A DNA stretch of 64,000 bases from a virus: IMG/VR virus record IMGVR_UViG_3300045051_001056, positions 1-64,000 of that record; one strand, written 5' to 3'. Position 1 is the first letter of the stretch. Every line of letters starts with the position of its first letter. The notes under the pieces are model-generated. The model worked only from the letters and a program-made list of their open reading frames with translations. It was not told the DNA's origin and searched no databases. Of this stretch, positions 127 to 34,409 are shown in pieces. Position numbers and translations under genes: made by a program.

Positions 127-151
127 AAAAAAGGGTGTACGATGACACCCC
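127..151 (-). terminator. rho-independent terminator after the 194-1183 gene
   Basis: On the minus strand GGGTGT pairs with ACACCC around a 6-nt loop and is followed by TTTTTT. It lies just after the stop of the 194-1183 gene, as expected for the end of that transcript. Confidence 0.75.
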
Positions 152-193
152 TTATTATAGCTAAATGCTGCAAAATTTCTATTCTCGATAGAA

Positions 194-6294: not shown

Positions 6295-6371
6295 TGCCGA
6301 ATTCTTAAATTTGTTACAAAATTAATAATTTTTATAATATACTGTATATATTTTATTGCATATACAGACAT

Positions 6372-6384
6372 TTATTGCTAAAAT
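6372..6384 (-). repeat. recurrent 13-bp motif TTATTGCTAAAAT, copy 1
   Basis: This 13-bp sequence abuts the stop codon of the minus-strand gene at 6385. Two further copies at 11033 and 21101 (TTATCGCTAAAAT) occupy nearly the same place beside the stops at 11046 and 21116. All three lie in gaps between late transcription units, so a termination, processing or late-promoter role is plausible. Confidence 0.5.
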
Positions 6385-6966
6385 CTATTTTCCTATTAAT
6401 TTAGCCAAAATATTGATAGGATTAAATATATTTAATTTTTTTAGCAAAAGTAATATTAGCAAGACGACCTGCCCTAAAATAATTCCAAAACACCATTTAT
6501 ATAATTTGGGAATAAATCTAACTGGAATAACTTTGTCGACAGTAGTTTCCCTAATCGCTCCCGGGATCTTGATTGTGTCCATTCTGGCGATTAGCAAGCT
6601 TGGCCTATTAATCCAAGCCCTTACGTCTAGTTGATTATTTAGTATGAAAGCATTTGCAGTTATTATCCCAAATGTTTTGGTGATTGGCTTCATGTTAGCA
6701 ACTCCGCTATCAATAGAAATGACGCCATTTATATGTATTGAATCTGCAGGCAATTTAACTTTTATAGTGTCATGTATGTAGATCGTTGTATCCTTTCTCA
6801 CAATTGTAGTAGTGGCAACATCTCCACAAACTCTTGCGAACCTATCGCAATTGTGGGCAATTTTAGACTCAGTTAGGCAACTATTCATTCCTAGTAGCAT
6901 TACTATGCCACAAATGGCCGAAAGTGCCTTAAATCGCGTAAAAACGCCCTTAAAATTGATTTTCAT
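6385..6966 (-). CDS. unimolecular spanin (u-spanin)-like lipoprotein
   Basis: A 193-aa protein with an N-terminal signal peptide ending in a lipobox (LLGMNSC, lipid-attachable Cys30), a beta-rich periplasmic middle part and one strong C-terminal membrane segment (about residues 158-177). A protein tied to the outer membrane by lipid and to the inner membrane by a C-terminal helix is the layout of unimolecular spanins such as T1 gp11, which fuse the two membranes at the end of lysis. It sits beside a holin-like gene and 0.7 kb from the endolysin, which supports the call. Confidence 0.7.
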   Translation of the reverse strand: MKINFKGVFTRFKALSAICGIVMLLGMNSCLTESKIAHNCDRFARVCGDVATTTIVRKDTTIYIHDTIKVKLPADSIHINGVISIDSGVANMKPITKTFGIITANAFILNNQLDVRAWINRPSLLIARMDTIKIPGAIRETTVDKVIPVRFIPKLYKWCFGIILGQVVLLILLLLKKLNIFNPINILAKLIGK

Positions 6967-6967
6967 A

Positions 6968-7177
6968 TTATTCTTCTAATTTTTTTTGCGCTAAAGTCAT
7001 TGCGGAAGATCCAAGAATCAGTCCAGACAATACGTATAGCAATTCAGGTGGAATCTGCTTTCCAATAATTATCGAAGTTTCCGCGACCACCAAAAGAATA
7101 AGCCCAACCAAGGCAGTAAACCTCTTACTACTAACGGTAGAACTATTGCTAAGCAGATTCGCAAAAAACTTCTTCAT
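6968..7177 (-). CDS. holin-like small membrane protein
   Basis: A 69-aa protein starting MKKFFANLL. I use the internal ATG because the longer reading upstream overlaps the neighbouring gene by 80 nt and starts at TTG. Two hydrophobic segments (about residues 22-38 and 45-60) are joined by a short turn, and the C-terminus is charged (AQKKLEE). Size and position between u-spanin and endolysin suggest a class II holin. It has no sequence signature that proves it. Confidence 0.55.
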   Translation of the reverse strand: MKKFFANLLSNSSTVSSKRFTALVGLILLVVAETSIIIGKQIPPELLYVLSGLILGSSAMTLAQKKLEE

Positions 7178-7178
7178 A

Positions 7179-7652
7179 TTATACTGTCGGTAAAACGGCA
7201 AACAATGCATATATCTTAATATTGCCAGCAGTCCAGTCTTGAAGATTTTCTGAGCCAAGAGTTACCCTAATGGTAATATCATCTAAGAGTCCATTAGGAA
7301 TAGTTGCATTTAATGCACTTATATCTACTGGGACAGTATTTGCTATTTGAGCCACAGAGGAAACTGAATTCTCGGTATATCCATAAGTGTAACTAGCAAA
7401 AGCTTCCGTATTTTTATATATCAATTGAAATATATATTTACCGGCTGGTTTCGCATTTGAAAACACTACATCAACAGTGGTAACCCCTGCGGTAGCGCTA
7501 TTTAAATCTGAATAATTTATATCGCCAATTTCAACTGGAACGCCTCCATCGATCAATATAGATTCATCGATTATTGTATTGATTGTATCTACCAGCTTGT
7601 TGACGAAATATTGTCCAGAAATCTCACTAACATTGACTTGAATTTTGTCCAT
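7179..7652 (-). CDS. tail-fibre-associated protein, paralogue of 10532-10963
   Basis: A 157-aa, beta-rich protein. It shares with the gene at 10532-10963 the signatures DLN-A-A, AGKYIFQLIYKNT against AGKYIANIFCKNT, and DWTAGNIKIYALF against DWTAGEIEVYATF. Both flank the glycosyltransferase and lysis genes and lie downstream of the fibre genes, so a small virion component such as a fibre tip or decoration is likely. I know of no named domain. Confidence 0.55.
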   Translation of the reverse strand: MDKIQVNVSEISGQYFVNKLVDTINTIIDESILIDGGVPVEIGDINYSDLNSATAGVTTVDVVFSNAKPAGKYIFQLIYKNTEAFASYTYGYTENSVSSVAQIANTVPVDISALNATIPNGLLDDITIRVTLGSENLQDWTAGNIKIYALFAVLPTV

Positions 7653-7673
7653 AATAAAGAATTATATAATTGT

Positions 7674-8207
7674 TTAACACAGGGGATTATATTCCATCGC
7701 CCTATCTAAGTATTTTTTTCTATCGGTTATTCCATTTGTTCCACCATTTATTCGTTTCGTTATTGAAACAAACTTGTCCAAATCGGCTAGCGGATTTAAT
7801 CCAAAAGCCCACCAAAACCAACATGCACTCCTAGAGGCATATTCTGGAGTTGAGAGAAGTTTTGGATTTTCCATCAAGTTAACGCCCAGAGCCTTTCCGC
7901 ACTTATAATAATTGTTTGCCCCAGTTAATTGTATTAATCCTCTGCCCTTATATTTTCTGCCATCACCATCCACTTGGGGAGTATTTCCCAAATCAGTTCT
8001 GGCATCATAACTATCACCACTTGCGAGTTCCTCCATGTATTTAAATTCTCCGCTTTCGTGAGCAACTTGGGCAATGAAATGATTTTCTCTCAGTGGAGTA
8101 TTTATCTCATAATCATTCATTCCCTTAATCAAAAAGGGGAATATTAGGTCCACTCTCCGCTCGCTAGCATTTGGCATTACCTTATATAGAAAATCTTTCG
8201 TTATCAT
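7674..8207 (-). CDS. GH19 endolysin (lysozyme/chitinase family)
   Basis: A 177-aa single-domain glycoside hydrolase family 19 protein expected to cut the peptidoglycan glycan strand. Visible motifs are HESGEFKYMEE (residues about 50-60, with catalytic-type Glu51 and Glu60), YKGRGLIQLTGANNY (about 86-100) and a Trp-rich segment ACWFWWAFG near residue 130. The length matches phage GH19 endolysins without a separate wall-binding domain. There is no signal peptide, so export would need the holin. It abuts the upstream gene. Confidence 0.88.
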   Translation of the reverse strand: MITKDFLYKVMPNASERRVDLIFPFLIKGMNDYEINTPLRENHFIAQVAHESGEFKYMEELASGDSYDARTDLGNTPQVDGDGRKYKGRGLIQLTGANNYYKCGKALGVNLMENPKLLSTPEYASRSACWFWWAFGLNPLADLDKFVSITKRINGGTNGITDRKKYLDRAMEYNPLC

Positions 8208-8575
8208 TACTTGCCATCTCTTCGTATTAGCAAATCCATCACCCTGTCCACCTTATTTTCAACCCTCTGAATTGTTGATATTACCATGTCCACCTTCGAA
8301 TCATCAGCCTTATTGCTTTCGACTCTCTTAATATAATCTAATATAAACTCGATTCTTTCTGCGGTACTAGATCTTTGCCCATTTATAAGTGAGGCTATAT
8401 CACTCTTGAGAGACACCATTTCTGTCGCATGTGATTCTATGTGACTATTTAATTTCTCGTCAATATTTCTAGTCCTCTCTTCCATAGTGGCTTCGGTCTT
8501 TTTAGTTGCTATGAGAGAGCTCGCAAGAGCTAATAATATTGTAACAACCCCTACCAAGATTTCTATCCAGTTCAT
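8207..8575 (-). CDS. N-terminally membrane-anchored coiled-coil protein
   Basis: A 122-aa protein with one membrane segment at residues about 4-22 followed by a long coiled coil (EERTRNIDEKLNSHIES and two further heptad blocks). It overlaps the endolysin start by 1 nt. Such proteins beside phage endolysins are often annotated as holin or inner-membrane lysis accessories. Holin, antiholin or spanin partner are all possible. Confidence 0.5.
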   Translation of the reverse strand: MNWIEILVGVVTILLALASSLIATKKTEATMEERTRNIDEKLNSHIESHATEMVSLKSDIASLINGQRSSTAERIEFILDYIKRVESNKADDSKVDMVISTIQRVENKVDRVMDLLIRRDGK

Positions 8576-8605
8576 ATTTTGCTATTTTATGGTAAATCAT
8601 TTTGG

Positions 8606-9007
8606 TTATTCTCCTAAAAGTATTAATTGTAATATATTGGACGCATCATATCCTAACTCAATCTTAGACAGGGATTCGAGTGGCACCTTAACTGTGAAAA
8701 AATCGAAATTAGTTTTAGTTTCTAAGAATTTGTTAATCTCTTTATTATATTCTGCCTGCAATTCATTTTTTCTTGACAGGTTTTCTTCAGATAGTTCTCC
8801 CTCAGTCTCATTAAGTTCTCTGAGTTCTTTAGGCATGAATTCGTTTATCTCTTGTCTAAATCCATGACAGGTTTCGGAAACATTTTTTAGGTTCCTGGCC
8901 ACCATAGTGTTTAACACTAAACTCTTGTACTCAGATTTTCTCAGCTCGTCCACTGCCAAACGTAAACCATTTTCTACTACAAATAATTCTCCATTCGTCA
9001 ATTCCAT
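8606..9007 (-). CDS. hypothetical protein with own promoter
   Basis: A 133-aa, helical, acidic protein with a Glu-rich coiled-coil region (about residues 45-85). No family is recognised. It is the first gene behind the promoter at 9038-9069 and precedes the lysis genes, so it may be expressed at the start of that unit. Confidence 0.5.
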   Translation of the reverse strand: MELTNGELFVVENGLRLAVDELRKSEYKSLVLNTMVARNLKNVSETCHGFRQEINEFMPKELRELNETEGELSEENLSRKNELQAEYNKEINKFLETKTNFDFFTVKVPLESLSKIELGYDASNILQLILLGE

Positions 9008-9037
9008 AGTTTCTAATTTTTTATTGTTTATAATTTA

Positions 9038-9069
9038 CAAATATAATATTAAAATTTTAATTGGCCAAA
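9038..9069 (-). promoter_or_regulatory. Bacteroidota-type promoter for the lysis/capsid unit
   Basis: The minus strand has TTTG, 20 bp, then TATATTTG, matching the Bacteroidota consensus TTTG-N19-21-TANNTTTG. The -7 box lies about 30 bp upstream of the start codon at 9007. The element overlaps the 3' end of the glycosyltransferase gene. Confidence 0.75.
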
Positions 9070-10532
9070 TTTAAACTTCTCTTAACAATCCTACAGCTCT
9101 TATTGCTGAAATTTTTTTCTATTACGGTTCTCGTAAATGTATTGGTTGGATTTATATCGATTTTAGGATTGTACTCTAAGTATTCCTTGTCTGTTGAATA
9201 GTGTCTACAAACTGCAGATGGAATCATCCACAATCTTCCTCCGCTTTGTTTTAAAGCCTTTCCCCACGCCCAATCATGTGCCTGTATGCCATCGCAGTAT
9301 GGTTTAAATGTTGGACATAAATCTTTCCAGAATATTAAGAATCCAGTTCCAGTATAATCTATTACAAATGGATCTAATGTTGGGACGTTTTCGAGATCTA
9401 CGGTTGATCTTGGATTCTCATCGTTATAAAATCCACCCACTATCTTTTGCCAATCTGGATTTCTATTGAGATATATTCCAGCAACAGCCTCTTTAACAGG
9501 ATTACCATTTGTAATATACTCGTATATGGATCTGAAACTATTTTCATTTGGAATAATATCATCCTCTCTCAGATGAACAAGTTCTCCATTGGCATTTTCA
9601 AGTATTCTATTGTACTGATCAGAAAGCAATTCACACACCTCATTTCTCCTATCTCGCTCGTCTTTCCAGTGAATTTTCTTGCCAGTTATAATTTTAATTT
9701 CAGAAAAGTGGTATCCATATTTTTCAACGACCTCTCCCAAATTTTCATCAGAATTATTTATAATAATTAATTGAGGCTTTTGCGCAACTACGCCTAAATC
9801 TTTGACAAGGATCTCCATCCATTTGTTAATAAATCCAGGAATTCTTCCAGAATAGATCAGCCCAATGGTCATGTTTACCATGTCTCTTCTTATCCTCTCA
9901 CTAAGACTTAGTAATTGCCCCTCAGATTTTTCTCTGCCTAAACTCCAACTTCCAGAATGTTGTCGATAATTGAGTACTGCCGAAGATTTTCTTGGCCTAC
10001 CAAGTCTTGACAGCCTAAGTGCTAGAGACCAATCCCACATGGTATTCACGCAAGTTTCCTGCCAGCATCCAACCTTATAAAACGCATCTCTCCAAATCAA
10101 TGCAGATGTGTTGACAAAGTTTCTATTCCAAAGAAATGACGTTCCCCAACTTTTAACTGGCCACCATGTTTCGAAATCCCCAAATGCATTGCACGGTCCA
10201 TACACGAATGGGGTGGATCTATCAAATACTTGTAAATGCCTCTCTATGTAGTCATTCGTGAGAATGTCATCTCCATCGAGAAATATAATTGCATCAGAAG
10301 TAGCATACGAAGCTCCGTCGTTCCTGGCGGCAACAACCCCCAAATGCTTATCATGTGGAACTACGATAACTTCCGGATATTTGCATGCTACATTAATGGA
10401 ACTATCATCTGAGAAATCATCTGAATAAATTATCTCCAGAGGTTTCACGGTTTGCCTAATGCAGCTCTCAATGGCTTCTGGCAAGTATTTTCCGTAATTT
10501 CTTGCAGTAATAATTACTGATACACTTATCAT
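9057..10532 (-). CDS. two-domain family 2 glycosyltransferase
   Basis: A 491-aa protein. The N-terminal GT-A domain (about 1-220) begins SVIITARNYGKYLPEAIES and has the metal-binding DGDD at 86-89 and a nucleotide-sugar pocket of the GT2 type. A second GT-A-like half (about 240-470) carries LREDDIIPNENSF and a Trp/His-rich acceptor region. No membrane segment is seen. It sits between tail-fibre and lysis genes and overlaps the upstream gene by 1 nt. It may glycosylate virion fibres or alter host surface sugars; context favours virion proteins. Confidence 0.8.
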   Translation of the reverse strand: MISVSVIITARNYGKYLPEAIESCIRQTVKPLEIIYSDDFSDDSSINVACKYPEVIVVPHDKHLGVVAARNDGASYATSDAIIFLDGDDILTNDYIERHLQVFDRSTPFVYGPCNAFGDFETWWPVKSWGTSFLWNRNFVNTSALIWRDAFYKVGCWQETCVNTMWDWSLALRLSRLGRPRKSSAVLNYRQHSGSWSLGREKSEGQLLSLSERIRRDMVNMTIGLIYSGRIPGFINKWMEILVKDLGVVAQKPQLIIINNSDENLGEVVEKYGYHFSEIKIITGKKIHWKDERDRRNEVCELLSDQYNRILENANGELVHLREDDIIPNENSFRSIYEYITNGNPVKEAVAGIYLNRNPDWQKIVGGFYNDENPRSTVDLENVPTLDPFVIDYTGTGFLIFWKDLCPTFKPYCDGIQAHDWAWGKALKQSGGRLWMIPSAVCRHYSTDKEYLEYNPKIDINPTNTFTRTVIEKNFSNKSCRIVKRSLNLAN

Positions 10533-10963
10533 TAAATGTTCGGATAATCAATGAATGTTGCGTAAACTTCTATTTCTCCCGCAGTCCAATCTTTCGGATT
10601 GGTTTCAGACAACGTAACCTTAACCGACAAATCATCCATCACTTTGGCTGGATAATATTGACCAATAGTTGTTACTCCCAATAAAACAGAATTATCTATT
10701 AACTCTATTTTGTCTATAGTTGCACTAGTAGAATAACTTACAAATGTAGCAGTATTCTTGCAGAATATATTTGCAATATATTTGCCGGCCTGCTTGCCAT
10801 CAGTATATGTAAAATCCACGGATAACGCCGATGCGCCATCATTTAAATCACCATAAGTAATGGTTCCTATCAGAATTGGATTTCCCTGGATTCTCGTAGT
10901 CAATTCGTTGATTGATCTGGATATCTGGGAACCCCTATTAGAATCTAGATAATTTAGTGGCAT
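10532..10963 (-). CDS. tail-fibre-associated protein, paralogue of 7179-7652
   Basis: A 143-aa, beta-rich protein related to 7179-7652 through its AGKYI, NTATF-SY and DWTAGEIEVYATF stretches. It has its own promoter (10980-11010) and comes directly after the long fibre gene. It is probably a small fibre or baseplate component and a possible substrate of the glycosyltransferase it overlaps. The function is inferred from context. Confidence 0.55.
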   Translation of the reverse strand: MPLNYLDSNRGSQISRSINELTTRIQGNPILIGTITYGDLNDGASALSVDFTYTDGKQAGKYIANIFCKNTATFVSYSTSATIDKIELIDNSVLLGVTTIGQYYPAKVMDDLSVKVTLSETNPKDWTAGEIEVYATFIDYPNI

Positions 10964-10979
10964 ATAAATAAAGTTTTGT

Positions 10980-11010
10980 CAAAAGTATAATTTTTTATCC
11001 ATATACGCAA
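10980..11010 (-). promoter_or_regulatory. Bacteroidota-type promoter before 10532-10963
   Basis: The minus strand has TTG, 20 bp, then TACTTTTG (TANNTTTG consensus). It lies 17 bp upstream of the start codon of the 10532-10963 gene. Confidence 0.6.
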
Positions 11011-11040
11011 TAGTAGAAAAATTTTTGTCCTATTATTGCT
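11007..11040 (-). repeat. inverted repeat after the long fibre gene
   Basis: GCAATAGTAG and CTATTATTGC form a 10-bp inverted repeat with one G/T mismatch around AAAAATTTTT. The right arm overlaps copy 2 (11033-11045) of the recurrent motif TTATTGCTAAAAT. It could be a weak terminator for the fibre transcript or an operator over the following promoter. Confidence 0.5.
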
Positions 11041-11045
11041 AAAAT

Positions 11046-14000
11046 TTATTTTGGAATTTTTGATTCAGCAATATTTAACCTACTCTCCAATTCTGCGACT
11101 TTTGCGATTAGTAGATCTATATAATTTATTACTTTGATTCCATTTTTTATCTTAACCAACTCTGGCGCATAGATCTCTACTTCCTGAGCCATCGCTCCAT
11201 ATCTTGGAACCCCTGGATTGTTTTTGAAATTAAATGAGTAGAATTTTATGTCTTTAAACTTTGATGAATTCATCTCAACTATATTCTCCTTTAACGTCAT
11301 ATCCGAAGGATAGACTGTGCTACTAAAAACTCCATCTCCGTTTACGGATGTTATATCTCCGGAGCAAGTTATTTTCCCAGTACTAGAGTTATAATCCCCA
11401 ACCTGAACAATGTCCCCGCCAAGATATGTATTGCCATTAACCATTAGTCTATTGCCGCTTCCGGGATCTACATTATAATTAATCATTGCATATCCAAGCT
11501 TACCAGTAGATGTTGTGTAACTTGAAACCGAAAGACCATTTGTTGAATCGTGAAAAAGTAGGCCAGAGCCGAATCCATTAAATTTTATGTACGGAGTTCT
11601 TGGAGTACCATTGCCCGCAGACGTAGCATCATTAGCGGTGTCATAAATATCACTATTGCCAACTATTATATCCGTTATAAATGAACTTCTACCTATCCTT
11701 AAGCCATAAGCGTTTGGGGTTCCACTAGTACTACTTAATCCAGTTATGTCTGGCCTATTGTTATTGCCACTAGAAAACGCACTCCTAGTGCATGTTAGGG
11801 AATAAAATAGCGATCCAATAGTAGATGATCCCTGAACCTTCTGATCCCAGCTTAGCCCAAGGGCAGAAATGGTCGACATGTTAATTGCATTTGCTCCAAT
11901 ATTTATATCACCCGCAAAAGTTGCATTGCCTGCTTGTGTAATTTTTAGAGCATTGATAGGCGTACCACCATTATATGTGTCTAAATTAAAAGCATTATCT
12001 GTTGACTGTCTTAATCCCCAATATCCAGAATACGAGACAAAACTATAATTTGAATTTGTATTGCCAACCGATATTGAATTAGAAGGAGAATTTGATGAGT
12101 ATAACCAAGGCGACGTAACGCTTCCTGCAAAAGTTGCGTTACCACCAACAGCTATTTTAAATCTGGAAGCACCTTGTTCAAGGATTTCCATTCCATAATC
12201 TGAATTGCCTACACCGATGCGCCAATATTCAGTATCATTGCTGGATTTCCATATAATATTCCCATCAGCATGGGTTGCGTCATTAGTGCGTTTTAAAATT
12301 ACATTACCACCAGAAGGAACATTGAGATTAACGTTGCCAGCAAAAGTTGCGTTACCTGTTGAATAATTAAGTCTAAATGGATATGTACTACTACCGTAAG
12401 AATAGACATAATAATCGCTTGTTCCATTTTCTTTACCAAATTCCCATTTTGCGGTTGCCCCTTCTCTAAGATAAAAACCAGCGACTTGAGAACTTGACGC
12501 AGCCCTAATATCAATAAAATTATGAGTTGTGCTTGTTATAGTTAATGGAGTGGTTGACGTACCTGTCAAGGTTGCGTTACCTGCACTTGTAACCGTGAAA
12601 ACATCAGAACCACCATCTAAGCCAGAAGTATTAACCCTGAATTTACCATTGCTTCCTTCTGAAATTCCAATAGCTACATCACCAGGTTTTGAAGCATGTG
12701 AATGCCCATAAAGATTTATTGCACCACCATATCCACCAGAACCACCACCTGCTTGAATAATGTATTTTCCTGCATAAGTGTTATCCGAATTGACTATATT
12801 ATAAAGCGCATTAGTTCCATTTGGAGTTATGAGATATTGTGAAACCGTTACACTCCCGGCAAAAGTTGCATTACCTAAACCATCAAGCGTCATTTTATCC
12901 CCATCATGATACCAATGCAAAATATCTGTTCCACTAAACAATCCATGATACCAATAATGTCCCCCGCCTGTACCTAATGAAATTCCAGTTTCAGATGTAT
13001 TATCCGGTCGATTTAAATATAAATATGAATTAGCTTTTGAAATATATAAATCACCTGTTAAAGTTCCTCCTGCAAGTGGTAAATGCCCTACCTGAGAATA
13101 GGAGTAGGCGGTGTTCCATTGAGTGCTATTACCTCCTGCTGCGGATATAGTAGAAACAAAACTCATAGATTTATCACTTGCTATTGTTCCAGCCAAATCA
13201 TAGCCATTAACATAAAACCTTAAATCTTTAGTACCTACACCTCCGGCAATAGAAGATTGAACCGTAACTCCATTATAAAAATCTATTTCACCTCCTCTAC
13301 TATTCCCTTTGAGATTAAGCAAGGCATAAGTATTAGAAGCAGATGGAACTATATTTAAATCTCCTGTCAAAGTACCACCGCTTAAAGGTAAATGCCCAAC
13401 CTGACTGTAAGTGTAAGCGGAGTTCCAGTTTGTGGAATTACCACCGCTTGCAGTAACAGTGCTTCCAAATTGGCCAGTACCATTAATCCACATAGAAGCA
13501 GTTTGTGCTCCTACTGATTGGTTTTGTATATATCCAGTTCCACCAGTGGCTGGAGATGCCCCTACGTCAGAATACAATAACCCATGTGCCGCGAATCCAT
13601 ATGTAGTAGGCGACAATGCTTTCATAAAATGCCCAGTAGTCAACCCAGATACTGGATGATTAGTGGTATCTACAAGATTGTGAATAGTTGGAGATACTCC
13701 AGTAAGCGCGTGAGTATGAGTATTTGTAGTTACTGAGTTTGTTGTGGCTAATGTAATAGTACTCGGCGTTCCCATATTAAGCACCTGCGTAGAAATCTGC
13801 AATCCGCTATTGGTTGCCAGAGTTACGGCATTATGCATTACTCCATAAGCCGAATTCCAATTCGCCTCCTCTGTGGTTGTAGGTATTACATACCCAGAAG
13901 TCAAACTAAATACCCCAGTAGTATTTGTATATGTCAATCCAGTGGCAGATGAACTTAATGATGTAAGATTTATCTTTCCATTGAACGTATTCCAATCTGT

Positions 14001-15821
14001 AGACGTCAAATATCCACTAAGTGAAGATGTTGCGGCCTGGGTGGCAATTGTATATTGCGCCGATGATAAATGATAATACTCCCCAAGAATACCGCCCTGA
14101 AGGCCACTCAAGGTATTGTGGGAAAATCCAACAGCAGTGCCAGAAGATTGAATAAGATTAGTACTCACTCTCTTAGGATCTGCAACCAACTTGCAGTTAC
14201 CAGTCCCTCCAGCTGCTTGATTTGTCCAGGTTAGCTGATATGCAATTACGAGTTCTGTGGAGATAAAGCCATCCAAGTTAAATGTTGCAGGATCCTCTGC
14301 TTGAGCTTGTACTAATGTGGCGAATTCAGCTCTACCTGGAATTATAAATATTGCCCACGATCCCTGAACGTTTGCAAAACACACATAGGTATTGACTAAT
14401 CTATTGTTCGTAGCGTCAGTCATTGTGCCCCCATTATCATATTGTATGGCATTATTGGCATTACCAACATTATATACAAAGGGCATATTACTTGTTTTCC
14501 AATTTCTCGTGGTCGCACCAGTTCTATATATTACATTATAGGCTAGTGTTATGCCATTTGGATCGGGGATTCCAGGGATACTATGAATAATATCTTCATC
14601 ATTTATTATAGAATTCGCTATTGCAAATGTCTTGCCTGTGTCGACACTGGAATTTAGGGTGTATCCGGTTATGGCGCCAAGGATCTGCATTTTCGTACCC
14701 TCATTAAAATGCTCATAATAGTGCATCCTTTCGTCAATAAGGACAGTATGTCTCTCTTCTCCCAAAAAATATTTCGGAGTTTGCGTATTATTCCAGAATA
14801 ATGTGGCAACAGGAATCTTGTCATCCAACAAATCCCAAGAGATTGTTGATGATATTAACGTTCCATCATTTGCATCTATATAGATAAAATACATTGTATT
14901 ATCCACCATGGGAGAGGCCACGGTTACGGTCTTACTACCAGTGATGGTTCGCCTAAATCCTTGTCGCCAATATGACCAAGTTGTGGCTGTTGGGGCTATT
15001 GTGAATAAATTAACCCCATCAAATGATATGGTGCTATCATATGGGGAAGTAAAGCCTAATCTATGTATATCTGTTGCAAAATATTGCGGAAGAAAATATG
15101 TAGAATCAAGCCCATCAAGTAAATCTGCATTCAGATTATTGACTAATGTTGTAGATCCTACGGTAAATGGCTTAGTTCCAGTTGTTGCCGTAAATGTTGG
15201 ATCCTGAACTCTAGCAAAAACTCCAGTTCCGCTACCAGTATATTCGGCAGACGTTAAATGATAATATTGTCCAGAAGATCCTCCCTGCAATCCAGACAGA
15301 CCATTGTGAAGTACTGTATCGGCATAGACCTTATCAACTAATTCATGCGGCAAATCTATGACTCTCCCGGCCTCCAAAAGAGGAATTCCATTGACAATTG
15401 TTTGAGTAGATGTTTGATCTAGGTTTAACAAGTTCTTCCATATTACATCTAACTCAACCTCGCGACTCATATCCAATGCAGACAAGTCCAGTCTTCTGTG
15501 CCTTATTGGCGCCAAAAATGGAGAACGCCCATCTCCTACAGATTTGTATATATATCCGAATTGACCTGTCTGGGGCCCATATCCAACCCCAAGACTGTCT
15601 GTTACTTCTATGTGATTAGGATTTCCCCCAACATTAATCGCTGTTATATTGTATGATACTCCTATGTAGTCTTTTAGATAATACCCAACTTGAAGGTCCA
15701 TTACTGGAGCTCCAGGCTCATTTATATCTAGTGGGGATACGGTAACCCTATATGTAGTTGGTGTTAATAATACTACATCGTTGACTATCGTAGTCCACGC
15801 AACGGTTGGAAGATATGACAT
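11046..15821 (-). CDS. long tail fibre with C-terminal S74 chaperone domain
   Basis: A 1591-aa protein and the largest gene in the window. The body has many repeated beta-modules: NATFAGSVT and NATFAGN units between about residues 1000 and 1400, and paired blocks SQVGHLPLSGGTLTGDL and SQVGHLPLAGGTLTGDL. The last ~90 residues form an intramolecular chaperone/auto-protease of peptidase family S74: SDMTLKENI with the Ser/Lys pair, then YGAMAQEVE and PELV, then a trimeric coiled coil (LLIAKVAELESRL). The domain drives trimerisation and is then cut off. It is the likely receptor-binding fibre. Confidence 0.88.
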   Translation of the reverse strand: MSYLPTVAWTTIVNDVVLLTPTTYRVTVSPLDINEPGAPVMDLQVGYYLKDYIGVSYNITAINVGGNPNHIEVTDSLGVGYGPQTGQFGYIYKSVGDGRSPFLAPIRHRRLDLSALDMSREVELDVIWKNLLNLDQTSTQTIVNGIPLLEAGRVIDLPHELVDKVYADTVLHNGLSGLQGGSSGQYYHLTSAEYTGSGTGVFARVQDPTFTATTGTKPFTVGSTTLVNNLNADLLDGLDSTYFLPQYFATDIHRLGFTSPYDSTISFDGVNLFTIAPTATTWSYWRQGFRRTITGSKTVTVASPMVDNTMYFIYIDANDGTLISSTISWDLLDDKIPVATLFWNNTQTPKYFLGEERHTVLIDERMHYYEHFNEGTKMQILGAITGYTLNSSVDTGKTFAIANSIINDEDIIHSIPGIPDPNGITLAYNVIYRTGATTRNWKTSNMPFVYNVGNANNAIQYDNGGTMTDATNNRLVNTYVCFANVQGSWAIFIIPGRAEFATLVQAQAEDPATFNLDGFISTELVIAYQLTWTNQAAGGTGNCKLVADPKRVSTNLIQSSGTAVGFSHNTLSGLQGGILGEYYHLSSAQYTIATQAATSSLSGYLTSTDWNTFNGKINLTSLSSSATGLTYTNTTGVFSLTSGYVIPTTTEEANWNSAYGVMHNAVTLATNSGLQISTQVLNMGTPSTITLATTNSVTTNTHTHALTGVSPTIHNLVDTTNHPVSGLTTGHFMKALSPTTYGFAAHGLLYSDVGASPATGGTGYIQNQSVGAQTASMWINGTGQFGSTVTASGGNSTNWNSAYTYSQVGHLPLSGGTLTGDLNIVPSASNTYALLNLKGNSRGGEIDFYNGVTVQSSIAGGVGTKDLRFYVNGYDLAGTIASDKSMSFVSTISAAGGNSTQWNTAYSYSQVGHLPLAGGTLTGDLYISKANSYLYLNRPDNTSETGISLGTGGGHYWYHGLFSGTDILHWYHDGDKMTLDGLGNATFAGSVTVSQYLITPNGTNALYNIVNSDNTYAGKYIIQAGGGSGGYGGAINLYGHSHASKPGDVAIGISEGSNGKFRVNTSGLDGGSDVFTVTSAGNATLTGTSTTPLTITSTTHNFIDIRAASSSQVAGFYLREGATAKWEFGKENGTSDYYVYSYGSSTYPFRLNYSTGNATFAGNVNLNVPSGGNVILKRTNDATHADGNIIWKSSNDTEYWRIGVGNSDYGMEILEQGASRFKIAVGGNATFAGSVTSPWLYSSNSPSNSISVGNTNSNYSFVSYSGYWGLRQSTDNAFNLDTYNGGTPINALKITQAGNATFAGDINIGANAINMSTISALGLSWDQKVQGSSTIGSLFYSLTCTRSAFSSGNNNRPDITGLSSTSGTPNAYGLRIGRSSFITDIIVGNSDIYDTANDATSAGNGTPRTPYIKFNGFGSGLLFHDSTNGLSVSSYTTSTGKLGYAMINYNVDPGSGNRLMVNGNTYLGGDIVQVGDYNSSTGKITCSGDITSVNGDGVFSSTVYPSDMTLKENIVEMNSSKFKDIKFYSFNFKNNPGVPRYGAMAQEVEIYAPELVKIKNGIKVINYIDLLIAKVAELESRLNIAESKIPK

Positions 15822-15824
15822 ATA

Positions 15825-17813
15825 TTAATCGAATACTAAATGAATTACTATTGGTTTTGACACAGTTGCGAGTGCCTCAATCCTCATATTACTTTGCGTT
15901 GGAGCGACTATCCCAGAATATGCAGCATTATTAAATAATTGCCTTTCCTCGGTTGCGCCATTCAATTCAAAAATTGTGACAAAAGATATCCTTCTAGACA
16001 AATTGTGCGTTATCTCTAAATCATTGGGATTTAACCCGTAAGCATTAAGAGTCCATCCTGCCGGATAATCCACTCCAGACGTAGCTCCCGCCACCCTGAG
16101 AGCAACTGAACCAGCATTTGGGAGGGTTATCGTATAAACAGTTTGCCTAAAGTTGTTTGCAGAAATATTACCATATACAGTAAGACTTCCGTCGCCATCT
16201 ATTGTCATCTGCTTGGTCAGTGATCCTCCCCTCATTAACCACCAATCAAATCTGCAATATTCATTATCCTGAGTGATGTCTGTCCATACGCAGTTAAATC
16301 GTCCAGATACTTTTTCTGAAAGAAGGGGGTCCACCCATCCCAATACTGGCATCAGAAAGTCTGTGGTTAGCCCGTATTCATCTGCGCCAACGGTATGAGC
16401 AGAATCTCCTCGCAAAGACAAAACAGTCCTTAGACCGGATGAAGTTGTGGTTAAATTCGCTCCCTGTATTGGTATGTTCGGAGAAAATCCAACGATCCCA
16501 TATCCGCTAACAGAATCGCTTCCTATGCCGAGAACTCCCACCCCCTGAGAATCCCCAGTTATACATACGCCCAAAGTACCATTAACAGCACTAATTGCAT
16601 CAGTTGTTAATAGTTGGGTAAATGTTTTTGCTCCGGTAACAGTTTCGGTCCCAGCTATATGCACTAAGTCTGCTGTGTCCAATCCAATATCCGATGGAGA
16701 TAATGTTCTTGTTGTATATGCTGTGGTGTGCCCAAGGGTGTTAACTATTAGAGAGGCCAACACGCTTGCCCCTGTTAGCGATAATGATATTGCCGACTGC
16801 GTTGGATGAGTGTAGGCTGCAGCTGGTGGATCGTTATAAACCACAAAGCCACTACCATCTATTGAGAGCCATTTCGATGGCGTACCCTTGGTCAGCTTTA
16901 TATTGGTCATATTAATCTCAAACAATCTATTGTTGTCATCGATCTTTATATATTCATTGTTTTGGCCGCCAGTTCCGACTATGGAACCTACCGTTATAGG
17001 AGTAGATGACGATGCGGTAAATGCTGATAATGTTGAGGATAGTGCATTGGTAAACCATTGAACAGTATTGCCAGCATCCGCCAAGGTATAGTCTCCAGTA
17101 TAACTTATAGTACTATATGTTGAAGATGAGAGCCTTGCGTTAAACGACGTGGCATTTATACCTCCATCAAGAGTTATAATATTATTTTGATAAGATGGAT
17201 ATCCTCCATTTAGACCATTGTAAAAATATGGATAGCTAGGATCTGACAATTTTTTTGTTGCATATGGAGCATACTTGGTTCCATCCCAATCAAAAGTATA
17301 ATCTAGTGGTGATGACAGTGTGGTGCTTAATATTCCACCACCATCTATTGACAGCCCATTACCAACCTTTATTCCACCCAAATTGCTACCAGAGGCGATT
17401 GGCAGGACATATGCCGCTGGAAACGTTACAGATATGGTGCCGTCGAGCGTAACATCTATATTGCTTCCAATTTTTACTCCTCCTAGCGCAAGTGTAGTAG
17501 CAGGCGCCAATGTGTATGAATATGGTGATGCGTATGTCCATTTCCCATCAGCGCCCATAACAAACAAGTCGCCGGTAGCAGCATCATCGACAGCATCATC
17601 CACATCAAGAAGGGATGGGATATTCGTATTTGCAATATATGAATTGAATATTTGTATCACCTGCTCTATCGTAACAGCAAGGCCTCCACCAGAACCGAGA
17701 GACTCAGAAGCATCTTTTGCTAAAAATATTAGCGTTGGCGGTATCTGAGAGTCCAGTTTGGTTGAGGCGTCACTATTAGGAGCAAAATCTGGAGTACTTT
17801 GACCTAACTTCAT
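15825..17813 (-). CDS. tail fibre/baseplate protein with repeats
   Basis: A 662-aa protein built of glycine-, serine- and threonine-rich beta-repeats, including the tandem ALGGVKIGSNIDVTLDG and NLGGIKVGNGLSIDGG blocks near residues 105-165. A SPSDIGL-type turn lies near residue 375. The C-terminal ~100 residues look globular. It shares fibre-type modules with the next gene and is separated from it by 3 nt. Probably a fibre base or second fibre subunit. No S74 domain is present. Confidence 0.7.
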   Translation of the reverse strand: MKLGQSTPDFAPNSDASTKLDSQIPPTLIFLAKDASESLGSGGGLAVTIEQVIQIFNSYIANTNIPSLLDVDDAVDDAATGDLFVMGADGKWTYASPYSYTLAPATTLALGGVKIGSNIDVTLDGTISVTFPAAYVLPIASGSNLGGIKVGNGLSIDGGGILSTTLSSPLDYTFDWDGTKYAPYATKKLSDPSYPYFYNGLNGGYPSYQNNIITLDGGINATSFNARLSSSTYSTISYTGDYTLADAGNTVQWFTNALSSTLSAFTASSSTPITVGSIVGTGGQNNEYIKIDDNNRLFEINMTNIKLTKGTPSKWLSIDGSGFVVYNDPPAAAYTHPTQSAISLSLTGASVLASLIVNTLGHTTAYTTRTLSPSDIGLDTADLVHIAGTETVTGAKTFTQLLTTDAISAVNGTLGVCITGDSQGVGVLGIGSDSVSGYGIVGFSPNIPIQGANLTTTSSGLRTVLSLRGDSAHTVGADEYGLTTDFLMPVLGWVDPLLSEKVSGRFNCVWTDITQDNEYCRFDWWLMRGGSLTKQMTIDGDGSLTVYGNISANNFRQTVYTITLPNAGSVALRVAGATSGVDYPAGWTLNAYGLNPNDLEITHNLSRRISFVTIFELNGATEERQLFNNAAYSGIVAPTQSNMRIEALATVSKPIVIHLVFD

Positions 17814-17823
17814 TATTAAAAAT

Positions 17824-18087
17824 TTAAGATGCAGTCCAGATGTCTGGGACCCTCTGGTATGTCAATCTATTAAACGTATATATTAATGCCCTAACCTTAT
17901 TAACGTCTAAAGGAAAATAATCATCTTCAGGCAAAACTTCTTGCAATGTTTCTATAATCATACCGATGTAGCCATCCTTGAAGTGATCATTTGAAAGATA
18001 TTGCCCTCCCTTCATTAACAATTCCCTATCTGCCACATAGTTAGAGGTTGCCTCGTCTAAAAAGGCCTGTAATTCTGTCCAAGTCAT
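17824..18087 (-). CDS. hypothetical tail-region protein
   Basis: An 87-aa acidic protein (MTWTELQAFLDEATSN...) with no recognised domain. It overlaps the upstream gene by 4 nt and is part of the portal-fibre operon. Confidence 0.55.
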   Translation of the reverse strand: MTWTELQAFLDEATSNYVADRELLMKGGQYLSNDHFKDGYIGMIIETLQEVLPEDDYFPLDVNKVRALIYTFNRLTYQRVPDIWTAS

Positions 18088-18620
18088 ACTAATTGTGCCT
18101 CAAGTCTTGTAAACATATTAATCTTGTTATATATCCCAGTGGTATTTCCACTAGCTATATCCGCGATGAGTCCTAAATACAGAATGTTTACCATACATGC
18201 AAATTTAACCTCAAGCGTATTTATTTTAAACGAATCGTTTACTGTGTTGAAACAGATTTGAGTTTTATATGCCCATGCATTATAATAAAATACCTCATCG
18301 GTAGAGTAATCCAGTGCGGTGGTGCCGGTAGTAAGTATTCTTATTGTGAGAATATCATCATCTATAATTCTGTCGGCCCCATACAAATCAGTTGCTGTAA
18401 TATCTATATACCAGTCTCCTTCTAAATCTGCCCCAACCAAGGATTTAGTGTAGGTGTCTAGCGTGCCTACGAAATTCAAATCCCCATCCTTAGTCTTGAT
18501 TGTGAGGGTGCCAGACGTTCCTGCTGCAACATATTCACTCCAATTGAGGGATGTATTATATATTCTTATTGCATGCCCAGCTAAGACGGGTGTGGTTGAA
18601 AAACTAAAAGTAATTGCCAT
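18084..18620 (-). CDS. hypothetical virion-associated protein
   Basis: A 178-aa protein, beta-rich in the N-terminal two thirds and more helical at the end. No named family is recognised. It lies 1 nt after the portal gene and is coupled to the following gene by a 4-nt overlap, so a tail or head-tail role is likely. Confidence 0.55.
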   Translation of the reverse strand: MAITFSFSTTPVLAGHAIRIYNTSLNWSEYVAAGTSGTLTIKTKDGDLNFVGTLDTYTKSLVGADLEGDWYIDITATDLYGADRIIDDDILTIRILTTGTTALDYSTDEVFYYNAWAYKTQICFNTVNDSFKINTLEVKFACMVNILYLGLIADIASGNTTGIYNKINMFTRLEAQLV

Positions 18621-18621
18621 A

Positions 18622-21021
18622 TTATGCAGTTTTTGCGGTTGTTTTCTTTATTTTGGAAATAGACTCCTTGGCCCTATTAGATCTTTTCGACTCCTCATGC
18701 TGAGCCTTTGCCAATTCCATCTGGTCCCCGTGCTTCTCTCGCTCGAGCTCAATTGCAGAATCCTTTAAGCTATTAGCTGTCGCATTCTTTTCAATGCTCT
18801 CTGAGGATTTCATTCCTCCCAACTTAAGCTTTGTCTCATTATCGCGAATATTGTTTCTTTCAAGCATTTCAATTTTATCTCGCTCTAATTGTTCTTTTGC
18901 GGCCTCCAGCTCTCTCTGTGCATCGATCTGTTGTTTCTGTAATTCCTGCGCATTTTTTCCTTCTTGGGCATTTCGTTCTATCATAGACTTTTCATCACGC
19001 TCAATCATTCTCATATTCTCTGCGAGAGAGGAAGATGTAAACAACTTCATTATTGTTGAGAATGAGAGTGTTTGATTTTGCAATGCAGCATGCGCTAACT
19101 GCTCGATTTTGCTATCGAGATTAGCTATTGACACAGAATTATCCACTACGATTCCATAATCAGCTTCAGCAAATTCTGCACCACCTATCTCATACATTGT
19201 AATACTATAATCGTCAGATATATTCTGAAACTTCTTCTTATTATTTTTTAGGGCAATCTTGGCAGTTTCAAGCAGGCATTCTAGGCAACGTTTTTTAACA
19301 TTATCGTGAACCACGAAAATCTCCTCGGTAATATTTGCGGATGCATTTACAGCCCTTTCTATGCCCCCAACCGTTTCTGACGCCTGAATCTGCCCCTGCC
19401 GCTGCTCAGATATTCCAGCAATAGCAAACATCTCTCTCTTAATCCACATCAAAAAATTAAGATGGAAATCGATTGATTTGGAATTATCTAAATCGTGAAC
19501 CCTTCCTGTGGCATTATTGATATTCATTGCCAATTTGCCCGTAGCGGCACCTTTATTGCCCTCCTTAAATGAGTCTACAACAGACATTCCGTCTTGACGC
19601 AGAAAGTGCAAATATGTCTCTATTTGCCATCCATCTGGTATCTTTGCCAAATCCAATTCTAGGACTTGACCGTACGATCGCATCAGCGCCTTATTAAGCC
19701 TATCTGAAACTATTGTATATAGGTATGCATATGGCTTCATTCTATCCACCAAAGAGATAGGTTTTGCATGATTGGTATTATACATTTGACCTATTACCCC
19801 CAGATGGCATTGAGACGGATTGCTAATCCTATTATATTGAATCTTTCGTGGACGCATATTAACATAAATGTCTTTACCAATCTTAACGCCCTCCCATGCC
19901 TCATTTATCCAATATTCTTTAACCTCTTCTCCCTTAGTTTTATCGGGAATATAATCTTCTGTTACAAATGTAAACTCCTCCTCACCAGTCTCTTCATTGT
20001 AATATTTTAATCTCTGAACCTTTCTAAGAGATTTCCATCTAACACGAAGAACTCTTATATTTCCATTGCCATCATAATAATTGGAGAACGTTCTGCCCAT
20101 GGCGCCAGCAAAATAGATCATTTGATCTATCGAGTTGGCCTCATCTCCAACGGATGGGGTATATATCATTGACGCACGTTCATCTATATTATCCATTGCA
20201 TCGACCTTGCTAATGGAATTGGTGCGCTGAATTTGATCTACATCTTCTTCTGTGAGCTCCTGATAATATGTGTCAATTATTCTACCGGGCGACCAATAGT
20301 CGTAAAGTATTATTAAATCTGCATCCTCTGCTCTAGACGAGAACCCATTTCTAAGTATAAATGTTTTTCTTGGATTAAGCCTCTCCATAGTTGGTTCGCC
20401 GCTAACTATATCGAAATCATATAGTTCCTCTCCAGCTATTGCAACATCTTTGAAGCCCTGATTCCATTTGAGCTTCATATCGAGCTCCTTGATATAATGA
20501 TTTATGAGAAAATTAGCAGATTTCTCCCTAGAGTCTTGCCAGGTATATGCAAAATAGTCAGAATTTTCCTGTAGCTTTTGCTCAAAGTCATTATCATTCA
20601 TTGACTCGTTCTTAATCAATGACATCATTGTTGCATTAAGTTCCTGTGACTTCTCCTTTTCTTTCTCGGAGATGGCATTATAGTTTGACACTATTGCCCT
20701 AAATTCAAAACGACGCTTTGCTTCTTCTCCAATTACAACATTGATTGGAGAGTTTATTATGGAATAATACTGGATACTCTCTGGTATAAGTCCCTCTGAG
20801 TCAGCCCCAAATGGATTTAACACCTCTTTCATGTCTGATATATGAAGCTTTCCGTCGAATAAGTCGTAATTAATCTTCTTATGGCGAAGGGATTGCCTTA
20901 CGTTGTTGTCGTAGAGCATACTAGACATATCACTCCAGTCCAGCATTTCCTTCCTCCACTTTTTATTCTTCTGGGAGTTCTTTAGTTTCTGCTGAGGGAA
21001 GCCAGTGGGGAAATTATACAT
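18622..21021 (-). CDS. portal protein, crAss-like
   Basis: A 799-aa portal protein. Residues about 90-140 (SIINSPINVVIGEEAKRRFEF) and the long helical middle fit the large portal family of crAss-like phages. A helical region near 560-580 holds GISEQRQGQIQASETVGG, the tunnel-lining type segment. The C-terminal 150 residues form a charged coiled coil (QKQQIDAQRELEAAKEQL), the barrel/crown part. It forms the dodecameric DNA gate at one capsid vertex. It has its own promoter and follows the terminase gene. Confidence 0.8.
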   Translation of the reverse strand: MYNFPTGFPQQKLKNSQKNKKWRKEMLDWSDMSSMLYDNNVRQSLRHKKINYDLFDGKLHISDMKEVLNPFGADSEGLIPESIQYYSIINSPINVVIGEEAKRRFEFRAIVSNYNAISEKEKEKSQELNATMMSLIKNESMNDNDFEQKLQENSDYFAYTWQDSREKSANFLINHYIKELDMKLKWNQGFKDVAIAGEELYDFDIVSGEPTMERLNPRKTFILRNGFSSRAEDADLIILYDYWSPGRIIDTYYQELTEEDVDQIQRTNSISKVDAMDNIDERASMIYTPSVGDEANSIDQMIYFAGAMGRTFSNYYDGNGNIRVLRVRWKSLRKVQRLKYYNEETGEEEFTFVTEDYIPDKTKGEEVKEYWINEAWEGVKIGKDIYVNMRPRKIQYNRISNPSQCHLGVIGQMYNTNHAKPISLVDRMKPYAYLYTIVSDRLNKALMRSYGQVLELDLAKIPDGWQIETYLHFLRQDGMSVVDSFKEGNKGAATGKLAMNINNATGRVHDLDNSKSIDFHLNFLMWIKREMFAIAGISEQRQGQIQASETVGGIERAVNASANITEEIFVVHDNVKKRCLECLLETAKIALKNNKKKFQNISDDYSITMYEIGGAEFAEADYGIVVDNSVSIANLDSKIEQLAHAALQNQTLSFSTIMKLFTSSSLAENMRMIERDEKSMIERNAQEGKNAQELQKQQIDAQRELEAAKEQLERDKIEMLERNNIRDNETKLKLGGMKSSESIEKNATANSLKDSAIELEREKHGDQMELAKAQHEESKRSNRAKESISKIKKTTAKTA

Positions 21022-21047
21022 AGTCCAAACTATTTACTAAATTTTTA

Positions 21048-21077
21048 CAAAAATAACTAAATTAATTGAGATACAAA
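21048..21077 (-). promoter_or_regulatory. Bacteroidota-type promoter for the portal unit
   Basis: The minus strand has TTTG, 18 bp, then TATTTTTG (TANNTTTG). It lies 27 bp upstream of the portal start codon. The spacer is 1-2 bp shorter than at the other sites. Confidence 0.55.
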
Positions 21078-21100
21078 ATAGACACTCGTTTACTGTACAT

Positions 21101-21113
21101 TTATCGCTAAAAT
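21101..21113 (-). repeat. recurrent 13-bp motif, copy 3 (TTATCGCTAAAAT)
   Basis: A near-identical copy of the motif at 6372 and 11033, again just beyond the stop codon of a minus-strand gene (terL) and upstream of the next unit's promoter. Confidence 0.5.
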
Positions 21114-24433: not shown

Positions 24434-24659
24434 AGTCTATTCTACTTAATGTTGTATATAATTTAAAAATTCTTGGTATATTGAAATTTACTTTCGCCTC
24501 CCTAAGATCGTCCTCTGTGTTTAAAATGCTGAAATCTTTGCCCTCCAAGGTTTTTCTTATAAATTTAAACATGTCAGTGTAGATTAACTCGGCCGTGCGA
24601 ACATCCACGCCATTTTCTCGAGCAATATCTTCTATGATCTTAGAGATAATTCTATCCAT
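24312..24659 (-). CDS. small HU/IHF-like DNA-binding protein candidate
   Basis: A 115-aa protein. The N-terminal 80 residues (IISKIIEDIARENGVDV, then FKFIRKTL, then NIPRIFKLYTTLSRI) follow the helix-helix-strand order of HU/IHF-like proteins found in Bacteroidota phages. The C-terminal 35 residues are acidic and look disordered. Its end overlaps the GroES-like gene in another frame. The HU/IHF assignment is a pattern match only. Confidence 0.45.
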   Translation of the reverse strand: MDRIISKIIEDIARENGVDVRTAELIYTDMFKFIRKTLEGKDFSILNTEDDLREAKVNFNIPRIFKLYTTLSRIDYARKAIIKKSSQHDEGVNVSDNTEEAERVIVDPSRSIRNE

Positions 24660-25029
24660 TAATTATAAAGTTAAATATTAACTTAAAATTGTCCGAGCCT
24701 ATCTCATAATTTGGTATCATCTTCTCATTCAACCTATTATCTAGTATAACTCCTTTGGCTCTCATTGAGCTGAGATAGTTTTGGAATGAACCCATTTTAC
24801 ACCCAACCTCATCCATAATTTCCTTCCTAGTTTCCGTAGAAAACAAGAGCTTATCAACTATATCTTCATCTTTTATGTGTATCATATATTGATATCTCTT
24901 CTTAAGAAACTTAAGAAATATCACCGATTCAGCTTCTGTCAACTTGTGTAGTGGCTTGGTGACAGCAACCCAATAGTCAAATAATTTATCCTCACTGGTT
25001 TTAATTGTCGCCACATTTGCATTCTTCAT
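24652..25029 (-). CDS. possible winged-helix regulatory or packaging protein
   Basis: A 125-aa protein. TRKEIMDEVGCKMGSFQNYLSSMRAKGVI (about 70-98) reads as a helix-turn-helix followed by a wing, which suggests DNA binding. It lies in a string of overlapping small genes upstream of the terminase. Small terminase, transcription regulator and replication initiator are all possible. Confidence 0.5.
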   Translation of the reverse strand: MKNANVATIKTSEDKLFDYWVAVTKPLHKLTEAESVIFLKFLKKRYQYMIHIKDEDIVDKLLFSTETRKEIMDEVGCKMGSFQNYLSSMRAKGVILDNRLNEKMIPNYEIGSDNFKLIFNFIING

Positions 25030-34310: not shown

Positions 34311-34409
34311 ATGGACCCACTGCCTTTCATTATATTAGGACTCTTATTATTATATTGGATGATTAAGAGTATGAATTCTGGAGGAAATAATAATTGTTGT
34401 ACAAGATAA
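34311..34409 (+). CDS. 32-aa membrane peptide
   Basis: MDPLPFIILGLLLLYWMIK is one membrane helix, followed by a Gly/Asn/Cys tail. Likely a short inner-membrane peptide. No known family. Confidence 0.4.
   Translation: MDPLPFIILGLLLLYWMIKSMNSGGNNNCCTR

What the first reader, a model, noticed from the sequence alone, without database searches (positions are those of the whole stretch)
6372..21113. 13-bp motif TTAT(T/C)GCTAAAAT beside three minus-strand stop codons
Copies at 6372, 11033 and 21101 sit 0-2 nt from the stop codons of the spanin, fibre and terminase genes and before the next unit. The repeated placement suggests a shared late-transcription signal, processing site or terminator part. 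A degenerate copy at 30052 precedes the AT-hook peptide.
Basis: seen in the sequence. Interest (0 to 1): 0.5.

Follow-up and report, generated by a model that had tools for sequence, protein, structure and literature searches.

The report
Late-promoter switch site in crAss-like phage
A short DNA word repeated beside several genes of a crAss-like phage is most likely not a gene-end signal but the docking site for a protein that switches on the phage's late (virion-building) genes, using the host's own RNA polymerase.

Summary
The repeats are real: 4 exact copies in 64 kb against 0.04 expected. They are not tied to stop codons. Read on the minus (coding) strand the core is TTTAGCNATAA; at four places it lies 45-47 nt, and at a fifth 54 nt, upstream of TAnnTTTG, the Bacteroidota -7 promoter box. 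These promoters precede virion and lysis genes of a Steigviridae-like (crAss-like) phage.

In this clade 17 of 22 late-region promoters examined carry the element (spacer 44-47 in 14, 54-58 in 3), against a mean of 1.5 for permuted motifs. The distance to the stop codon varies from -54 to +28. A weight matrix built only from relatives ranks the four late promoters 1-4 in the 97.7-kb record. Other Steigviridae have different words at fixed distances from the same box at orthologous genes.

Best reading: an upstream activator site of late promoters read by host RNA polymerase. Candidate activator: a 125-aa winged-helix-like protein at 24652-25029, orthologous to crAss001 gp13. Binding and activation are inferred, not shown. 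Against: some boxes before late genes lack the element.

The parts
21101..21113 (-). element ATTTTAGCGATAA upstream of the portal unit
   Evidence: exact copy; core to box spacer 45; matrix rank 2
21048..21055 (-). -7 box TATTTTTG, 26 nt before portal gene 18622-21021
   Evidence: portal phrog_6547
11033..11045 (-). element ATTTTAGCAATAA
   Evidence: exact copy; spacer 45; matrix rank 3
10980..10987 (-). -7 box TACTTTTG with TTG 20 nt before it, 16 nt before ORF 10532-10963
9100..9112 (-). element copy ATTTCAGCAATAA (1 mismatch), inside the end of ORF 9057-10532
   Evidence: spacer 54; matrix rank 6
9038..9045 (-). -7 box TATATTTG, 30 nt before ORF 8606-9007; endolysin gene 7674-8207 lies behind it
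6372..6384 (-). element ATTTTAGCAATAA
   Evidence: exact copy; spacer 47; TTTAGC-ATA invariant in 5 orthologous promoters
6317..6324 (-). -7 box TAATTTTG, 22 nt before ORF 5161-6294; major capsid gene 3621-5135 lies behind it
155..167 (-). element CATTTAGCTATAA (core exact)
   Evidence: spacer 45; TAGC-ATAA invariant in 4 phages; matrix rank 1
127..153 (-). terminator-like hairpin and T run between element and box
   Evidence: sequence, fold; also in L009, L010, L012
102..109 (-). -7 box TATATTTG, 17 nt before an ATG at 84; the frame runs off the record start
34617..34629 (-). fourth exact copy; doubtful member: inside a plausible plus-strand coding frame, TATCTTTG with a TTG 20 nt before it follows at spacer 60
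30052..30064 (-). 1-mismatch copy without a box: not shown to belong
   Evidence: matrix rank 5
24652..25029 (-). candidate activator, 125 aa, ortholog of crAss001 gp13 and phi14:2 g098
   Evidence: model with three helices 55-91 and a short wing

Best explanation
The motif is the upstream activator-type site of a set of late promoters. Shown by sequence: on the coding (minus) strand TTTAGCNATAA lies at a fixed distance (44-47 nt, or about one helical turn more) upstream of TAnnTTTG before virion and lysis units, in this phage and its relatives, and is conserved while its flanks diverge. Inferred: host RNA polymerase with the Bacteroidota housekeeping sigma factor reads the TAnnTTTG box (the element then spans about -68 to -58), and a protein bound to the element recruits it, as class I activators do, making up for a poor -33 box. 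Most likely the protein is phage-made; the best candidate is the 125-aa winged-helix-like protein at 24652-25029, in the gene cluster that precedes the terminase gene (this last step alone about 0.45).
For: Exact copies 4 against 0.04. Spacer 45, 45, 45, 47 (and 54) to TAnnTTTG; chance of at least 4 of 7 core copies with a box at 44-47 nt is 1e-9 from window density and 2e-5 from late intergenic density. 17 of 22 promoters in the clade, 14 of the 19 picked without the motif, against means of 1.5 for permuted motifs and shuffled DNA. Footprint conservation. A matrix from 12 relatives' sites ranks the four promoters 1-4 in 97,745 bases. In L009 both spacers are longer by 10-12 nt than at the orthologous sites. 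-33 TTG in 7 of 17 promoters with the element, 5 of 5 without, 34 of 35 in gut relatives. Other genera show other words at fixed offsets. Late genes are thought to be read by host RNA polymerase (PMC10136315 passages; PMC8375218 section 8).
Against: No RNA or protein data. Boxes before other late genes of the same record lack the element: 86149 (before 84426-86126) and 80169 (before the 3219-aa gene 70477-80136), and in relatives L012_6560, L010_7354, L009_5983. Seven of 17 element promoters keep a -33 TTG. One core copy (30062) scores as well as the real ones without a box. Of six distant loci (L007, L008, L013, L014, L021, L022) none has the element at a late spacing by the rule used, except 2-mismatch hits of doubtful meaning. 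For the candidate protein: structural matches are weak, and helix and element types could go together by common descent alone.
Confidence: 0.75

Rival explanations
1. The element is part of the late promoters but is bound by a host regulator or nucleoid protein, or by another phage protein (HU or IHF-like, zinc finger), not by the gp13-type protein.
For: crAss001 also encodes HU and a putative zinc-finger factor next to gp13, and IHF-like proteins lie in the late cluster.
Against: The element differs between genera in step with the predicted recognition helix of the gp13-type protein; a host factor shared by Bacteroides phages and their relatives would favour one word.
Confidence: 0.35
2. The element is an operator for a repressor that keeps late promoters silent early in infection.
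For: Same position and conservation would result.
Against: A site centred near -63 is far upstream for a simple repressor (general knowledge), and weak -33 boxes fit activation better.
Confidence: 0.1
3. It is an RNA processing site or part of a terminator at the end of the upstream gene, as the reader also proposed.
For: In this phage three copies touch a stop codon, and a terminator-like hairpin follows the copy at 155-167.
Against: Stop-to-element distance varies from -54 to +28 in 17 sites; no common hairpin holds the element; spacing to the promoter box is what is kept.
Confidence: 0.04
4. Chance repeat in an AT-rich genome.
For: GC is 35%; with 2 mismatches only 23 copies against 13.9.
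Against: Exact count, spacing, conservation and the matrix built without this phage.
Confidence: 0.01

Closest known systems
Late promoters of Crassvirales (crAss001, phi14:2 and relatives)
   Same: Orthologous genes carry TAnnTTTG boxes, and late genes are thought to be read by host RNA polymerase (PMC10136315 passages; PMC8375218 section 8).
   Different: The upstream word differs: CAGTAAAT at 65-66 or 39 nt in 14 of 35 gut promoters, TAAACGCTATTAAAA at 58 nt in 2 of 4 phi14:2 promoters, AGTAGTAGATATT in 2 of 3 cr108 promoters; gut promoters keep the -33 TTG in 34 of 35.
Phage P2 late promoters with the Ogr activator (recalled)
   Same: Phage-made activator, site upstream near -55, poor -35 box, host polymerase.
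   Different: Other sigma factor and box; site is not the P2 word; the candidate is not a zinc-finger protein by Pfam.
Phage phi29 late promoter A3 with protein p4 (recalled)
   Same: Phage activator bound upstream of a late promoter without a -35 box.
   Different: Different site, host and protein; here several late promoters share the site.

Membership tests
Bacteroidota sigma-A type promoter (PMC6847099 passages) | -7 box TANNTTTG shortly before a gene | tested here: met
   Five element copies in the window are followed by it, 16-30 nt before a start codon
Bacteroidota sigma-A type promoter (PMC6847099 passages) | -33 element (TTTG/TTG), described as weak in Flavobacterium | tested here: inconclusive
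   TTG 18-21 nt before the box in 3 of 5 window element promoters and 7 of 17 in the clade
Bacteroidota sigma-A type promoter (PMC6847099 passages) | Transcription start 4-5 nt after the box | not testable with these tools
   No RNA data for this phage
Activator-dependent (class I) promoter | Sequence-specific site at a fixed, helix-phased distance upstream | tested here: met
   Spacer 44-47 in 14 of 17, 54-58 in 3, none at 48-53
Activator-dependent (class I) promoter | A protein binds the site and raises transcription | not testable with these tools
   Needs binding and reporter assays
P2 Ogr-type late promoter (recalled) | Ogr recognition word and zinc-finger activator | tested here: not met
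   The consensus of 17 sites is another word; the candidate has no zinc-finger hit in Pfam at E 1
VpsT/LuxR-type regulator (database label of gp13 orthologs) | LuxR-type HTH domain | tested here: not met
   No such Pfam hit at E 1 for the window, cr108 and phi14:2 proteins; none in NCBIfam for these and crAss001 gp13
Winged-helix DNA-binding protein | Three-helix core with recognition helix and wing | tested here: inconclusive
   Model pLDDT 80 with helices 55-62, 65-75, 79-91 and strands 95-96, 99-100; Foldseek E 0.26 or worse; best Z 7.9, rmsd 4.0, 91 aligned
Intrinsic terminator or processing site | Hairpin holding the motif, fixed place after the gene end | tested here: not met

The most novel reading that the evidence does not exclude
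Steigviridae share one late-gene activator, the gp13-type winged-helix protein, whose DNA specificity is rewritten from genus to genus together with its sites: TTTAGCNATAA here, TAAACGCTATTAAAA in phi14:2, CAGTAAAT in crAss001 and gut relatives, AGTAGTAGATATT in cr108. It would be the missing switch that turns host RNA polymerase to the late genes in crAss-like phages.
Probability: 0.35. Interest if true: 0.75.

Novelty: new variant of a known kind. Interest (0 to 1): 0.6.

Why it matters
crAss-like phages dominate many human gut viromes. Their early genes are read by a polymerase carried in the virion; late genes are thought to be read by the host polymerase, but what turns it to them is, as far as I found, not described. 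A defined site, a fixed geometry and one small candidate protein make that question directly testable in cultured relatives (crAss001, DAC15, phi14:2), which show the same layout with other words. Genus-specific late-promoter words would also allow late operons to be called from sequence alone.

Tried and rejected
They say nothing and are not used.

MAFFT did not align the portal-promoter region across L005, L006 and L007 usefully; these sites were read relative to the -7 box instead. L007 (portal 46%) has a TATATTTG before its portal gene but no element. A 13-base core of the phi14:2 word has 2 exact copies in that genome, the two late promoters, but 21 matches at up to 2 mismatches (7 for the reversed control).

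Rejected: terminator or processing site; chance; membership of the 30052 copy. The 34617 copy may be coincidence, since it codes for part of a plausible plus-strand membrane protein, but a minus-strand box with a TTG 20 nt before it follows at spacer 60. The plus-strand core copy at 28279 has a box at spacer 61 and was not followed.

Rows dropped or added before counting: from the motif-blind list I dropped L016_5608 (same sequence as L017), L005_9284 (overlaps L005_9293) and L018_3588 (a box without the element). I added win109, L018_3658 and L011_200, found by hand or through the motif. So 19 of the 22 were picked blind, 14 of these with the element (14 of 20 with the dropped L018_3588). An earlier count said 20 of 22; that is wrong. 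The words for phi14:2, cr108 and the gut phages were first seen and then counted on the same promoters, and several gut phages are near-identical there (crAss001 and tikkala), so those counts are not held-out tests.

Literature: ten searches gave listings only; I then saw passages of PMC8375218 (and its section 8), PMC10136315, PMC7886860 and PMC6847099. None of what I saw describes late promoters of crAss-like phages. Other listed papers were not opened. The phi14:2 virion-polymerase paper (PMC12127119) is not held, so I cannot say what it reports on late promoters.
Full report
OBSERVATION. TTATYGCTAAAAT occurs exactly four times in the 64-kb window, at 6372, 11033, 21101 and 34617, against a shuffle mean of 0.04. 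The whole 97,745-base record has no further exact copy. The core TTTAGCNATAA has 7 exact copies in the record: 155, 6372, 11033, 21101, 30052 and 34617 on the minus strand and 28279 on the plus strand.

WHAT PHAGE IT IS. The major capsid protein matches phrog_11589 and the portal phrog_6547, the terminase phrog_6681. The best named relatives in the phage collection are crAss-like: capsid 58% to cr111_1, portal 50-51% to crAss-like phages. The relatives whose records I opened are classed as Steigviridae, Asinivirinae. Portal, capsid and tail genes lie on the minus strand, in the order seen in crAss001 and phi14:2.

WHAT THE MOTIF GOES WITH. Read on the minus strand, four core copies (21111, 11043, 6382, 165) are followed after 45, 45, 47 and 45 nt by TAnnTTTG, and the 1-mismatch copy at 9110 after 54 nt. 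TANNTTTG is the -7 box of Bacteroidota promoters, with T at -12 and G at -5 (PMC6847099, passages). The five boxes lie 16-30 nt before a start codon. The units are: portal (18622-21021); 10532-10963; 8606-9007 with the endolysin gene behind it; 5161-6294 with the major capsid gene behind it; and a frame that starts at 84 and runs off the record. If the first base of the box is -12, the 11-base element spans about -68 to -58 (inference).

STATISTICS. For the 7 core copies the chance that 4 or more have a box at 44-47 nt is 1e-9 from the box density of the window and 2e-5 from that of late intergenic DNA alone. In this clade I compared 22 promoters. 19 came from a rule that does not use the motif (intergenic TAHHTTTG within 75 nt of an ORF start) and 3 were added by hand or through the motif. 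17 of 22 carry the element at up to 2 mismatches, 15 of 22 at up to 1; among the 19 blind ones 14, or 14 of 20 with the one I dropped. About 1000 column permutations of the motif give means of 1.5 and 0.13 (largest 14 and 6); 1000 shuffles of the upstream DNA give the same means (largest 7 and 3). The spacers are 44 (6), 45 (4), 46 (2), 47 (2), 54, 55 and 58; none from 48 to 53.

FOOTPRINT. In five orthologous capsid-unit promoters TTTAGC-ATA is invariant in an alignment of 60% mean identity. At the 155-167 site TAGC-ATAA is invariant in four phages at 64%. L009 has spacers of 58 and 55 where the others have 46-47 and 44-45, about one helical turn more. Over the 17 sites AGC-AT is invariant, though the sites were picked by likeness to the motif. 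A matrix built from the 12 relatives' sites alone, run over all 97,745 bases on both strands, puts the four late promoters at ranks 1-4. Rank 5 is 30062, without a box; rank 6 is 9110; rank 7 is 34627.

NOT A GENE-END SIGNAL. In 17 sites the distance from the upstream stop codon to the core runs from -54 to +28, and 5 copies lie before or across the stop (the stop is that of the longest open frame ending nearby, an automatic choice). RNA folds of the 17 regions show no common hairpin with the element. At 155-167 a terminator-like hairpin lies between element and box, here and in L009, L010 and L012.

ACTIVATOR SIGNATURE. TTG at 18-21 nt before the box (the -33 element) is present in 7 of 17 promoters with the element and 5 of 5 without (one-sided p = 0.03), and in 34 of 35 late promoters of ten gut-type Steigviridae. 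Two of the five without (win27800, L005_1032) stand in the upstream part of the gene block, win27800 before a polymerase exonuclease gene, and may not be late. A poor -33 box with a kept upstream site is the usual picture of activator dependence (general knowledge). By the same box rule the plus strand from 27001 to 64000 has only 2 such boxes before genes, neither with the element.

AGAINST. Not every late box has the element: in the rest of the record 86149 (before 84426-86126) and 80169 (before the 3219-aa gene 70477-80136) lack it, as do L012_6560, L010_7354 and L009_5983. So it marks a subset of late promoters. More distant relatives (L007, L008, L013, L014, L021, L022) show at most doubtful 2-mismatch hits at such spacings.

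OTHER GENERA. At orthologous promoters phi14:2 shares 15 identical bases (TAAACGCTATTAAAA) at the same offset, 58 nt before the box, in 2 of the 4 promoters listed; cr108 shares 13 (AGTAGTAGATATT) at the same offset in 2 of 3. None of 20,000 resamples of either pair reached this. In gut-type Steigviridae CAGTAAAT stands in 14 of 35 promoters, at 65-66 nt (11) or 39 nt (3), with 0.22 expected; 9 of the 10 genomes have it, cr108 not. These words were found on the same promoters on which they were counted, and some genomes are near-identical there.

CANDIDATE ACTIVATOR. 24652-25029 (125 aa) lies four genes upstream of the terminase and is orthologous to cr108 gp086 (34%), phi14:2 g098 (38%) and crAss001 gp13 (35% over 109 residues). 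It matches 52 phage records at E up to 0.01; none is a Flavobacterium phage, though 29 of these share the capsid gene. Records call it VpsT-like, but Pfam and NCBIfam show no LuxR-type domain. The AlphaFold model (4 sequences, mean pLDDT 80) has three helices at 55-91 and a short wing. Structural matches are mostly winged-helix proteins but weak: Foldseek E 0.26 or worse, Z up to 7.9. The predicted recognition helix reads FQNYL(S/T)SMR in three members of this clade, FQVI(M/L)GK(L/F)R in the seven CAGTAAAT phages aligned, FQSVLTNLR in cr108 and LQNNLTKLR in phi14:2. Helix type and element type thus go together in four groups. Common descent alone could give this, so it is a lead, not proof.

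MECHANISM, STEP BY STEP. Shown here: element, box, spacing, conservation and place before late genes. From the literature: late genes are likely read by host RNA polymerase (PMC10136315, passages; PMC8375218, section 8). Inferred: a protein binds the element and recruits that polymerase; the protein is phage-made; it is the 24652-25029 product.

NOVELTY. Ten searches of the held library, of which I opened four papers in part, showed no account of late promoters of crAss-like phages. The phi14:2 polymerase paper could not be read. The principle, an upstream site for a late activator, is known from P2 and phi29 (recalled). The site, the host sigma type, the candidate protein and the rewriting from genus to genus appear to be new.

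Noticed in passing
window 127-153, minus strand: A terminator-like hairpin sits between the element and the -7 box of the promoter at 155-102; it is kept in L009, L010 and L012.
   Followed up: partly
window 34549-34629, minus strand: Fourth exact copy followed at spacer 60 by TTG-N20-TATCTTTG on the minus strand, opposite to the plus-strand genes; a 47-aa frame (34363-34506) lies downstream.
   Followed up: partly
window 27001-64000, plus strand: Only 2 TAHHTTTG boxes stand before plus-strand genes by the rule used, as expected if a phage polymerase reads early and middle genes.
   Followed up: partly
L270, L296-L303 (gut-type Steigviridae): Many late promoters read TTTTACT directly before the -7 box, an apparent extension of the box.
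   Followed up: no
window 39291-39363: One tRNA gene (tRNA-Met) was found in the window, whereas crAss001 has a large tRNA cluster.
   Followed up: no
window 28279-28358, plus strand: A plus-strand core copy with TAnnTTTG at spacer 61, in the region where transcription directions diverge.
   Followed up: no
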